20,970 bases of DNA from a virus: positions 1-20,970 of IMG/VR virus record IMGVR_UViG_3300009537_000215; one strand, written 5' to 3'. Positions within the stretch are counted from its first letter, which is position 1; every line of letters begins with the position of its first letter. Positions 18,138-20,970 of this stretch are shown here, in pieces. A model generated the notes under the pieces. It was not told the DNA's origin. It was given only the letters and a program-made list of their open reading frames with translations, and did not search any database. Position numbers and translations under genes: made by a program.

Positions 18138-19523
18138 CTATCTCCCTAATATATCATAATCGCATTTGGCCTTAACTTGCAATACCCTATCCTCAATAAA
18201 TTGACTACCACCACCACGCATTGACATAGTGCGACTCATGCCAGGACTGTAATTCTCAGCAAATAATCTAAAACCATCAGCACCATGAGATGCCCAATCA
18301 TGTACTGGAGTATCCATATACGTCTGTCTTTTAGTATCATACTTCCTCTGATACCCCGATAAAGCCTTACGACCGAAAAATGTTTTCTCTTTATCAAAAA
18401 AACATTTAGGTAATACTTGCCTAACCGCATGAATCCCCTCAGCAGGATTTTGATTCCGAGGACAAGTCACAACATCCTTATACCCATGATCGATAAAATA
18501 ATCCATTCTAGTCTTCCCACCAAAAGTCAACTCCCTAACGGAAGCATCATGTGGTAGGAATATTGTACCATATTTATAATCTAGTTCCTCTTCCTTCTTA
18601 TCCATAACCTCGAAGTAATGGTCTAATCCTTTCCCATGTTCCTCATAATAATCAATAACCGCGATAGAAAGTCCTTGCTCTTGGATAAACCAGATAGTCA
18701 TAGAATCAGACATACCTAAATCCCAGAAGGTCATAACTGGAACTGATGGGTCAACTGGCACTCTAGAAATATGCCCCCTGGCCATAAGCTCATCCATCTG
18801 AGATTGATAGTACTTACCAGAAGGAGCCGCGTTCCAATCACATTCATATTCCTGTGCATAGGCTTCGGCACTCATTGTTTTTTTAAGCATGGCAAGTTCT
18901 TTCTCTGGTATAATCCCAGACTCTGAAGCTTTAACCAATAGGTGCATCCAATCAGCATCCTCAACTGCCATATCATAAAGAGACTTAAAGGCGTTCTCTC
19001 CTCTAGGAGTCCCAATAATAATTTCCCATCCTTCCCTATCGGATAGCATTGGAAGGAATACCTTATCCCTAACATCGGGGTGCATATCTGCGTATTCATC
19101 TAAAATGTACCCATCTAAGTACATACCTCGGAAGGCATCGAAGTTTTCAGCCCCGAATAGATATATAGTTGCAACACCGAATTCTTCACTTAATGGAATA
19201 GTGGCCCTAAGTTTTGTCTCGTTAAACTTAACACCTGGTACGTTCCTTAAATAATCTTTAAGGTATTGCCAAGCGATCTTTTCCACCTGACCAGATGTAG
19301 TAGCAACATAAGCGAACTGAGGATTACGTAAAGGTTTACCATCCTTATATTTATTAAAAGAAACTGCCTTATGAATTAAGGTATTAATACCGAAGACAGA
19401 TTTACCGCCCCTACGGTGGAACACCAATATGTTATGTCGTTTAAGTTTAAGGAAAGCGGCCTTCTGCCAATTTCTTGGAATAAAGCCGGTACTAACCCTA
19501 GTCGATTGCTTTTGTTGTTTCAG
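18138..19523 (-). CDS. terL: Terminase large subunit (CTG or other non-ATG start)
   Basis: DNA-packaging motor. ATPase: Walker A HRRGGKS (about 36-42 from a CTG start) and Walker B YILDE (about 139-143). RNase-H-like nuclease: FWDLGMSDS (D about 268), LPHD (D about 326) and HDWASHGADGF (D about 409/416). No ATG exists upstream of Walker A. The frame is open to a TAA at 19547-19545 and encodes a conserved-looking TGFIPRNWQ...KLKRHNILVFHRR. A start at TTG 19427 would leave only three residues before Walker A and lose this segment, so CTG 19523 is preferred; its CTGA overlaps the 74-aa gene's stop exactly as ATGA overlaps do. That gives 461 aa, normal length. A -1 frameshift from the 74-aa gene is the alternative. 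Portal and head genes follow. Confidence 0.88.
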   Translation of the reverse strand: MKQQKQSTRVSTGFIPRNWQKAAFLKLKRHNILVFHRRGGKSVFGINTLIHKAVSFNKYKDGKPLRNPQFAYVATTSGQVEKIAWQYLKDYLRNVPGVKFNETKLRATIPLSEEFGVATIYLFGAENFDAFRGMYLDGYILDEYADMHPDVRDKVFLPMLSDREGWEIIIGTPRGENAFKSLYDMAVEDADWMHLLVKASESGIIPEKELAMLKKTMSAEAYAQEYECDWNAAPSGKYYQSQMDELMARGHISRVPVDPSVPVMTFWDLGMSDSMTIWFIQEQGLSIAVIDYYEEHGKGLDHYFEVMDKKEEELDYKYGTIFLPHDASVRELTFGGKTRMDYFIDHGYKDVVTCPRNQNPAEGIHAVRQVLPKCFFDKEKTFFGRKALSGYQRKYDTKRQTYMDTPVHDWASHGADGFRLFAENYSPGMSRTMSMRGGGSQFIEDRVLQVKAKCDYDILGR

Positions 19524-19981: not shown

Positions 19982-20013
19982 AATAAACTATTGCGTTAAC
20001 AATTATATTTATT
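19982..20013. promoter_or_regulatory. Dyad centred on GTTAAC upstream of the HTH gene
   Basis: AATAAA (19982-19987) and ATTG (19990-19993) are mirrored by CAAT (20000-20003) and TTTATT (20008-20013), with GTTAAC (19995-20000) at the centre region. It ends five bases before the -35 box of the regulator gene. The same hexamer makes up the downstream array, so it may be an operator for self-regulation. Confidence 0.35.
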
Positions 20014-20018
20014 TAATA

Positions 20019-20046
20019 TTGACATTTTATTAGAATTTATTAAAAT
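20019..20046 (+). promoter_or_regulatory. Sigma-70-like promoter of the HTH gene
   Basis: A perfect TTGACA (20019-20024) and TAAAAT (20041-20046, five of six) are separated by 16 bp. The start near 20053 gives a leader of about 36 bases carrying a small CCTTT/AAAGG hairpin (20054-20066) and an AGGGG ribosome site (20081-20085) before ATG 20089. Confidence 0.6.
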
Positions 20047-20088: not shown

Positions 20089-20565
20089 ATGGCTAAATTC
20101 AACGAGTTTATGTGGAAAACAATTGAGCGTAAAAAACAATTTAAAGAATTTACAGATTACTACAGTAGGGTAAAACCAGACGAATCAGGGATAGATTTAG
20201 AGTATAGGATTGGTAAAAGAGTATTAGATTATATAAAATCCAACTCACTATCTGTAACTACATTTGCTTCTAAACTAGAAGTTAATCCTAGAACTGTATT
20301 CAATTGGATTACAGGTAAATCTATACCTTGCTCTAAAACTTATATAACCTTATTTGAGTTAGACAATAAGCAGTTTCCTTTATTCTTAAAGTATCATTTC
20401 AAACCTGTGAAGGTTTATATATGTAAAAACTGTTGTGGCCCTATCGCCTCTAAACTGAATACAGAAGCATGGAAGATAATAGATAATTACTGTGCTCCTT
20501 ATACAATACGAAATACCAAGGGCATAACTATAGAATGTTGGAACTGTAAAATTCCTAACCAATAA
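20089..20565 (+). CDS. Helix-turn-helix regulator with C-terminal zinc-ribbon-like domain
   Basis: This 158-aa protein, the only plus-strand gene here, starts at ATG 20089 after GTGAGGGG. Residues about 42-92 form an XRE/Cro-type helix-turn-helix: helices VLDYIKSN, TTFASKLE, the recognition helix region NPRTVFNWITGKSIP, and a closing helix TYITLFEL. The N-terminal 40 residues are charged and helical. The C-terminus has CKNC (112/115), C116, C135 and CWNC (150/153), arranged like a zinc ribbon; zinc binding or pairing is inferred. It is transcribed away from the virion operon and is bracketed by GTTAAC sites and an eight-copy GTTAAC array. Likely a transcriptional regulator (repressor or late switch) or an origin-binding protein. 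A repressor of lysogeny is possible, but no integrase is in view. Confidence 0.75.
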   Translation: MAKFNEFMWKTIERKKQFKEFTDYYSRVKPDESGIDLEYRIGKRVLDYIKSNSLSVTTFASKLEVNPRTVFNWITGKSIPCSKTYITLFELDNKQFPLFLKYHFKPVKVYICKNCCGPIASKLNTEAWKIIDNYCAPYTIRNTKGITIECWNCKIPNQ

Positions 20566-20574
20566 GAGTTAACA

Positions 20575-20635
20575 AAACCCTTCCGAACCAATAGAGTAAA
20601 ATAGTCAACTATTATTCCAAACCCTTCCGAACCAA
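20575..20635. repeat. 17-bp direct repeat pair
   Basis: AAACCCTTCCGAACCAA occurs perfectly at 20575-20591 and 20619-20635, 44 bp apart, just after the regulator gene's stop. It is separate from the hairpins and array that follow. It could be a binding site or relic of recombination. Confidence 0.8.
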
Positions 20636-20641
20636 GCAGGG

Positions 20642-20659
20642 GAGGGCTCCACAGCCCTC
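20642..20659 (+). terminator. GC-rich hairpin 1 after the HTH gene
   Basis: GAGGGCT (20642-20648) pairs with AGCCCTC (20653-20659), a perfect 7-bp stem and 4-base loop. No T tract follows on either strand, so it is a candidate weak terminator or RNA 3' end only. Confidence 0.45.
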
Positions 20660-20668
20660 ACAACTAAT

Positions 20669-20685
20669 TGGGGGTCCTACCCCCA
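20669..20685 (+). terminator. GC-rich hairpin 2 after the HTH gene
   Basis: TGGGGGT (20669-20675) pairs with ACCCCCA (20679-20685), loop of three. In the transcript it is followed by TCTAATATAAT. Its 3' arm plus tail (CTACCCCCATCTAAT) is nearly identical to that of the hairpin after the capsid gene. No T run follows. Confidence 0.45.
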
Positions 20686-20688
20686 TCT

Positions 20689-20757
20689 AATATAATACTT
20701 TCAACACCTTACCTACAATTTAACCCTTAACACATTACAATATAATACGTAGCGTAT
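20689..20757 (+). promoter_or_regulatory. Candidate promoter region with repeated TATAAT decamer
   Basis: AATATAATAC occurs at 20689-20698 and 20739-20748, each containing a perfect TATAAT -10. No good -35 is found at 16-18 bp for either. Next to the second copy, ATACG (20745-20749) and CGTAT (20753-20757) form an inverted repeat with a 3-base gap. This may drive genes right of the window under control of the array just downstream. Confidence 0.35.
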
Positions 20758-20785
20758 CGGAATCTCCGCAGTATAAAATCAATTT

Positions 20786-20875
20786 GTTAACACCTGAGCT
20801 AACAAGTCTGTTAACAGGTTAGTTAACAAGGCTGTTAACAGATTAGTTAACAAGGCTGTTAACAGGTGAGTTAAC
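20786..20875. repeat. Iteron-like array: eight GTTAAC sites every 12 bp
   Basis: GTTAAC begins at 20786, 20810, 20822, 20834, 20846, 20858 and 20870, with GCTAAC at 20798: eight sites exactly 12 bp apart. Two unit types alternate: one with the palindrome TGTTAACA (starting 20785, 20809, 20833, 20857; 24-bp period) and one with AGTTAACAAGGCT-like sequence. The two central 24-bp blocks (20810-20833, 20834-20857) differ at a single base. Regular spacing and a palindromic core indicate multiple binding sites for a dimeric DNA-binding protein, as in origin iterons or cooperative operators. Confidence 0.9.
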
Positions 20876-20940
20876 GCTCTATCAATATGTTAGCTGTGAT
20901 TTCCTATGGAATAAATGCACGTTAGGGTGAAAAGTGGGCT

Positions 20941-20970
20941 AATCTCTCATCAATCTCTCATCAATCTCTC
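20941..20970. repeat. 11-bp tandem repeat running off the window
   Basis: AATCTCTCATC occurs at 20941-20951 and 20952-20962, with eight more bases of a third copy to the window end. The true length of the array cannot be seen. It lies 65 bp after the GTTAAC array. The remaining stretch between (20876-20940) shows nothing I can name. Confidence 0.75.

What the first reader, a model, noticed from the sequence alone, without database searches (positions are those of the whole stretch)
20786..20875. Strictly phased array of eight GTTAAC sites, alternating two unit types
Eight hexamer sites (seven exact, one GCTAAC) sit at exactly 12-bp intervals, with a 24-bp super-period of alternating palindromic (TGTTAACA) and asymmetric units. 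This is too regular for chance: elsewhere in the window GTTAAC occurs only as isolated copies. The 12-bp phase is slightly more than one helical turn, so adjacent sites rotate gradually; a 24-bp spacing suits dimers on alternate sites. It follows candidate promoters, so it may be a cooperative operator or a replication origin.
Basis: partly seen in the sequence, partly recalled or inferred. Interest (0 to 1): 0.8.

Follow-up and report, generated by a model that had tools for sequence, protein, structure and literature searches.

The report
Phased GTTAAC binding-site array in podovirus
A lytic phage carries, between its late and early gene blocks, eight copies of one six-letter DNA word spaced exactly 12 letters apart, almost certainly a docking strip for a protein that starts replication or controls early genes; strips of this general kind are known, but this one is specific to this phage.

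Summary
In detail: seven GTTAAC plus one GCTAAC start every 12 bp from 20786 to 20870, alternating TGTTAACA and AGTTAACA half-units (24-bp period). The array is non-coding and far beyond chance. Between the two half-unit types the hexamers stay the same while the 6-bp spacers have diverged, so the hexamer at 12-bp phase is what is maintained. The window is half of a probably lytic podovirus. The array lies in the divergent region between the terminase/structural arm and the missing early arm, 95 bp from the contig end, which falls inside a second, 11-bp tandem repeat. No relative shares the GTTAAC array, but many carry a different tandem array in the same region. In unrelated phages, non-coding GTTAAC clusters recur directly 3' of replicative helicase genes (mostly with AT-only stretches) or at small-terminase genes. 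Best reading: an iteron-like array for cooperative protein loading, slightly favouring a replication initiator (0.37) over an early operator (0.32) or packaging site (0.16). The AT-only stretch expected of an origin is absent from the visible flanks and the early genes are cut off, so the function is not settled. New member of a known kind.

The parts
20786..20875 (.). The array: eight hexamers (seven GTTAAC, one GCTAAC at 20798) at 12-bp phase, 24-bp super-period
20785..20864 (.). A-type sites TGTTAACA at 20785, 20809, 20833, 20857; three are 10-bp palindromes CTGTTAACAG
20797..20875 (.). B-type sites at 20797 (AGCTAACA), 20821 and 20845 (AGTTAACA), 20869 (AGTTAACG)
20941..20970 (.). Second tandem repeat AATCTCTCATC (11 bp, 2.7 copies, 100%), cut by the contig end
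20666..20686 (.). G/C-rich dyad box AATTGGGGGTCCTACCCCCAT, found again in the same region of relatives
20739..20748 (+). AATATAATAC, -10-like box (second copy at 20689-20698); no clear -35
20568..20573 (.). Single GTTAAC (AGTTAACAA), best match to the array motif outside the array, 2 bp after the stop of the 158-aa gene
19995..20000 (.). Single GTTAAC, 19 bp before a TTGACA-16-TAAAAT promoter-like site (20019-20046) ahead of the 158-aa gene
20089..20565 (+). 158-aa protein, weak XRE-like HTH, CxxC...CxxC tail; candidate array-binding regulator
   Evidence: no relatives found
18138..19427 (-). Terminase large subunit, first large gene of the leftward structural arm
   Evidence: phrog_2

Best explanation
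The array is a protein-loading (iteron-like) site in the divergent control region of a probably lytic podovirus. Each GTTAAC is one recognition site; protomers or dimers of one phage protein bind every 12 bp, cooperatively, and gather the 90 bp into a nucleoprotein filament. Most likely that protein is the replication initiator or helicase loader, and the array is the iteron part of the phage origin. Shown: the array, its non-randomness, the selective keeping of the hexamer at 12-bp phase, its non-coding position between the structural arm and the (inferred) early arm, and recurrence of GTTAAC clusters next to replicative helicase genes in other phages. Inferred: that a protein binds, that binding is cooperative, and that it serves replication in this phage.
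For: Hexamer kept while spacers diverged. Location in the divergent inter-arm region, where many relatives also carry tandem arrays. In unrelated phages, five of about 19 distinct non-coding GTTAAC cluster groups lie directly 3' of a replicative helicase-type ATPase gene (L372, L377, L055, L046, L382), four of them with a 40-bp stretch of at least 92.5% A+T within 150 bp. The only other long runs (four or more sites at 10-14 bp) are L372, L377 and L055, all of this origin-like class. In the complete relative G003 the cumulative GC skew minimum falls at this end of the structural arm, although gene direction changes there too.
Against: No AT-only stretch within 150 bp of the array (best 40-mer 75% A+T, ordinary for this window), although only 95 bp are visible on one side. 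No DnaA-box enrichment. No replication gene in the window, because the early arm is missing. No relative has this array. Seven cluster groups are of the small-terminase class instead, so the hexamer alone does not imply an origin.
Confidence: 0.37

Rival explanations
1. Cooperative operator of the early (rightward) transcription region, bound by the 158-aa HTH protein or another phage regulator, working like the phage 186 Apl array: weak single sites, strong neighbour cooperativity, repression or switching of early transcription.
For: Array lies just downstream of -10-like boxes and of a gene for an HTH protein. The best extra-array match to the motif (20567) directly follows that gene, and another site (19995) precedes its promoter-like site. 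Precedent: 186 Apl has seven direct repeats at 10-11 bp between early promoters and needs three or more adjacent sites to bind (PMC7498355). Relatives have spaced palindromes in the same region (L081, L082; also L085 by eye).
Against: Relatives with arrays lack an ORF158 homologue at that place, and L086, which has a Cro/YdaS-like gene there, has no evident array. The complete relatives show no recognisable integrase. Two extra GTTAAC sites in about 1 kb are only weakly unusual.
Confidence: 0.32
2. Packaging-initiation site (cos/pac-like): the array binds the small terminase near the genome terminus.
For: The array is 5' of the terminase operon. Seven non-coding GTTAAC cluster groups in other phages lie at or just upstream of small-terminase genes. 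Contig ends of relatives cluster 1-3 kb upstream of TerL (21 of 47). In the distant HTVC010P-type phage Skadi the terminal repeat is placed at TerL (PMC10504331). A G/C-rich dyad box next to the array is shared by relatives.
Against: 1.0 kb and an opposite-strand gene separate the array from the terminase operon. Known sites of this type have few, irregularly spaced repeats at the small-terminase gene (SPP1: three sets of direct repeats, PMC4737164). Contig ends also fall at tandem repeats for assembly reasons.
Confidence: 0.16
3. Neutral tandem repeat that grew by replication slippage in a repeat-prone intergenic region.
For: Relatives show many unrelated tandem repeats here and a second 11-bp repeat lies 65 bp downstream.
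Against: The two 12-bp half-units share the hexamer but not the spacer (1/24 versus 13/18 differences, p = 4e-6), and copies of the 24-bp unit vary in the A spacers (12/36) far more than in the hexamers (7/168). Neutral decay would not do that.
Confidence: 0.1

Closest known systems
Iteron arrays of phage and plasmid replication origins (lambda ori, iteron plasmids; from general knowledge)
   Same: Regularly spaced direct repeats of one recognition word, non-coding here, in a control region between gene blocks
   Different: Known iterons are usually 17-22 bp with about two-turn spacing and an adjacent AT-rich unwinding element; here the spacing is 12 bp, the sites are self-palindromic, and no AT-only element is visible
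Phage 186 Apl operator array at pR-pL (and the RDF group: lambda Xis, P2 Cox), PMC7498355
   Same: Seven or eight contiguous sites about one helical turn apart, close to early promoters
   Different: Apl spacing is 10-11 bp (one face) in a temperate phage with integrase; here 12 bp, so sites rotate about 50 degrees each, and no integrase is known in the group
tubC centromere of TubZRC partition systems (PMC5016525, PMC7762940)
   Same: Multiple short repeats bound as a helical filament by a small HTH protein
   Different: No tubR/tubZ in the window and relatives look lytic; the sequence similarity of the repeats was recalled from memory and not confirmed
Phage pac/cosB sites (SPP1/SF6 pac, PMC4737164)
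   Same: Direct repeats at the terminase end of the genome; GTTAAC clusters were found at several small-terminase genes here
   Different: Known sites lie at or near the small-terminase gene and are not one strict 12-bp run

Membership tests
Iteron-type replication origin | Several direct repeats of one recognition sequence in regular phase | tested here: met
Iteron-type replication origin | AT-rich unwinding element next to the repeats | tested here: not met
   Best 40-mer within 150 bp is 75% A+T, ordinary for the window; only 95 bp are visible on the right side
Iteron-type replication origin | Initiator or replicative helicase gene nearby | tested here: inconclusive
   Early arm lies outside the record; complete relatives have a helicase-like gene in the early arm, not next to the array region
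Iteron-type replication origin | DnaA boxes near the repeats (typical, not obligatory) | tested here: not met
   No enrichment, none in 20430-20970
Iteron-type replication origin | Supports autonomous replication / initiator binds the repeats | not testable with these tools
   needs experiment
Cooperative phage operator array (186 Apl-like) | Three or more adjacent direct repeats about one turn apart | tested here: met
   Eight at 12 bp; Apl sites are at 10-11 bp
Cooperative phage operator array (186 Apl-like) | Array overlaps or lies between the promoters it controls | tested here: inconclusive
   Two -10-like boxes upstream, no -35
Cooperative phage operator array (186 Apl-like) | Encoded Xis/Apl-type protein and integrase | tested here: inconclusive
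   None evident in the window or by inspection in two complete relatives; the missing half cannot be checked
Packaging site (cos/pac) | Located at the genome end / terminase cleavage site | tested here: inconclusive
   Contig ends cluster in this region in relatives, but repeats also break assemblies
Packaging site (cos/pac) | Repeats at or just upstream of the small-terminase gene | tested here: not met
   1.0 kb and an opposite-strand gene lie between; the small terminase itself is not identified
TubZRC centromere (tubC) | Adjacent tubR/tubZ operon | tested here: inconclusive
   None found in the window; the record ends 95 bp after the array

The most novel reading that the evidence does not exclude
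GTTAAC is a recurrent recognition word of phage initiation proteins: unrelated phages with different helicase families (AAA_25, Prim-Pol/DUF3987, DUF3987, VapE) and different small terminases converge on arrays of it at origins and packaging sites, and this podovirus has the most regular example, a strict 12-bp filament-nucleating array.
Probability: 0.12. Interest if true: 0.7.

Novelty: new member of a known kind. Interest (0 to 1): 0.42.

Why it matters
It points to a cis-acting control or initiation site of an uncultured group of podoviruses whose replication and early regulation are unstudied. The side result, that GTTAAC clusters recur next to replicative helicases and small terminases in unrelated phages, gives a simple DNA signature for predicting phage origins and packaging sites that can be tested directly.

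Tried and rejected
Protein-coding repeat: rejected, since all frames are stopped, whereas most other 12-bp GTTAAC runs in public data are coding repeats (VN..VN.. peptides) or perfect simple repeats. Hairpin selected as such: the z-score of -6.3 comes from the palindromic hexamers; with hexamers fixed and spacers shuffled, 34 of 500 controls fold as well. Rfam element: none. tRNA: none. CtrA-type (TTAA-N7-TTAA) and ArcA-type (11-bp) motifs, both from memory: the spacing does not fit. DnaA boxes: 50 against 48.7 expected, none at the array. A shared site in relatives: no GTTAAC array in any of them, and none of the array-bearing contigs of the pattern scans is a close relative. Similar DNA in phage or plasmid collections: none. 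A looser 24-bp TTAAC pattern hit too many chance sites to be useful. Structure of the 158-aa protein: model too poor to use.

Full report
Observation. The window ends with a non-coding array of eight hexamers, seven GTTAAC and one GCTAAC, at exact 12-bp steps from 20786 to 20870, last base 20875. TRF reads it as a 24-bp unit, 3.8 copies at 88%. GTTAAC is 3.3-fold over expectation in the window (18 against 5.5), and the 11 copies outside the array are isolated. In 2000 simulations of the local sequence no hexamer at any period gave a phased run above 3, against 6 exact here.

What is kept. The array alternates TGTTAACA (A) and AGTTAACA (B) half-units. Between adjacent A and B half-units, hexamers differ at 1 of 24 positions and spacers at 13 of 18 (p = 4e-6). 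Over all A-B comparisons hexamers differ at 4 of 96 and spacers at 50 of 72 positions, close to the random 75%. So the 12-bp phase of the hexamer is maintained while the spacer is free, which is the pattern of a row of protein sites rather than of a recent duplication. Dyad symmetry is centred on the hexamers. The strong predicted hairpin (z -6.3) is a consequence of the palindromic hexamers.

Where it is. The window is a 20,970-bp linear virus record holding the structural half of a podovirus: terminase, head-tail adaptor, major head protein and tail proteins, all leftward from 19744. One rightward gene follows (158 aa, 20089-20565) with a weak HTH_3 match and a CxxC...CxxC tail, then a conserved G/C-rich box, two -10-like boxes, the array, and the contig end, which lies inside a second, 11-bp tandem repeat. 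The early arm is missing.

Relatives. The nearest relatives by terminase are 50-61% identical. Two contigs with overlapping ends look complete (42.9 and 41.6 kb); each has one structural and one early arm, a helicase-like protein and no recognisable integrase by inspection, so they look lytic. None of the relatives has the GTTAAC array. Instead the same divergent region often carries other tandem arrays: L081 22-24 bp, L082 47 bp, L080 18 bp, L107 14 bp, L253 13 bp, L256, L258, L260, L262, L271, L277 11 bp x 5.8, L280 57 bp, L284 66 bp, L395 43 bp. The rate of tandem arrays upstream of TerL is about 3.8 times that of the structural arm (26 in 146 kb against 22 in 469 kb; a few of the 26 are in open frames). 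It is therefore a repeat-bearing region whose sequence turns over quickly. Contig ends also cluster 1-3 kb upstream of TerL (21 of 47), partly because repeats break assemblies.

The same hexamer elsewhere. A scan of 2.9 million viral contigs for three phased GTTAAC gave 74 stretches, and a looser four-site pattern gave 93. Most are coding repeats. The non-coding clusters fall into about 19 groups by hand count. Seven lie at or just upstream of a small-terminase gene: L010, the L033 family, L344, the L345 family, L352, L364 and the L041 family; the protein family was confirmed for L381 (of the L345 family), L010, L344, L352 and L033 and judged by gene content and order in the others. Five lie directly 3' of a replicative helicase-type ATPase gene: L372 AAA_25, L377 Prim-Pol/DUF3987, L055 DUF3987, L046 VapE, L382 KaiC-like, the last a weak match. 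The first four have a 40-bp stretch of at least 92.5% A+T within 150 bp, rare elsewhere in their loci; the window does not (best 75%). A scan of 85,000 cellular genomes for four phased sites gave 20 stretches, which look like coding or perfect simple repeats.

Reading. Four mechanisms remain. (i) Iterons for a replication initiator: best supported by the look-alike arrays beside helicases, weakened by the missing AT-only stretch. (ii) A cooperative operator, with phage 186 Apl as precedent (seven direct repeats at 10-11 bp between early promoters; binding needs three or more neighbours; PMC7498355), supported by the adjacent HTH gene and the single GTTAAC sites at 19995 and 20568. (iii) A packaging site, supported by the terminase-type clusters and the location. 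(iv) Neutral repeats, contradicted by the hexamer/spacer contrast. I put (i) at 0.37, (ii) at 0.32, (iii) at 0.16 and (iv) at 0.10. The common core, a cooperative nucleoprotein array with one protomer or dimer every 12 bp, I hold at about 0.85. Successive sites rotate by about 50 degrees (12 bp against 10.5 bp per turn), so the complex would be a gently wrapped filament rather than a one-face array.

Limits. The early arm is missing, no close strain is available to test conservation of phase, and the 158-aa protein has no relatives and no usable model. The neighbour statistics (nominal p 1e-5 and 1.5e-8) were computed after seeing the pattern, on a hand grouping, with an assumed base rate of 1 in 60, so they are only a guide.

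Noticed in passing
window 20640-20686; L081 8829-8844, L080 4519, L082 9040, L083 3914, L085 4036, L086 1538: A G/C-rich box (AATTGGGGGTCCTACCCCC in the window) is shared by relatives with 50-61% identical terminases, in the same divergent non-coding region; it could be a packaging or origin element.
   Followed up: partly
L372 7716-7886, L377 4928-5194, L055 11148-11331, L046 7301-7548: GTTAAC clusters beside an AT-only stretch directly 3' of four different replicative helicase/primase genes; they look like phage replication origins with a common hexamer.
   Followed up: partly
L359 846-1154, L381 1350-1646, L354 5612-5907, L346 2282-2578, L350, L345: A family of phages has two GTTAAC clusters with a nearly fixed spacing pattern (8, 13, 43, 12, 9 and 12, 21, 21) upstream of a small-terminase gene (phrog_57) and a large terminase; a candidate terminase-binding site.
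   Followed up: partly
L086 3930-4166: A Cro/YdaS-like HTH gene occupies the place that the 158-aa gene has in the window, divergent from the terminase operon.
   Followed up: no
L277 20-83; L280 1-216; L395 -829 and -1265 from TerL: Striking perfect or near-perfect tandem arrays (11 bp x 5.8, 57 bp x 3.8, 43 bp x 2.6, 18 bp x 3.7) in the region upstream of TerL in relatives; the 18-bp array of L395 appears to be coding.
   Followed up: no
window 20575-20635: A 17-bp exact direct repeat AAACCCTTCCGAACCAA at 20575 and 20619, just after the 158-aa gene.
   Followed up: no
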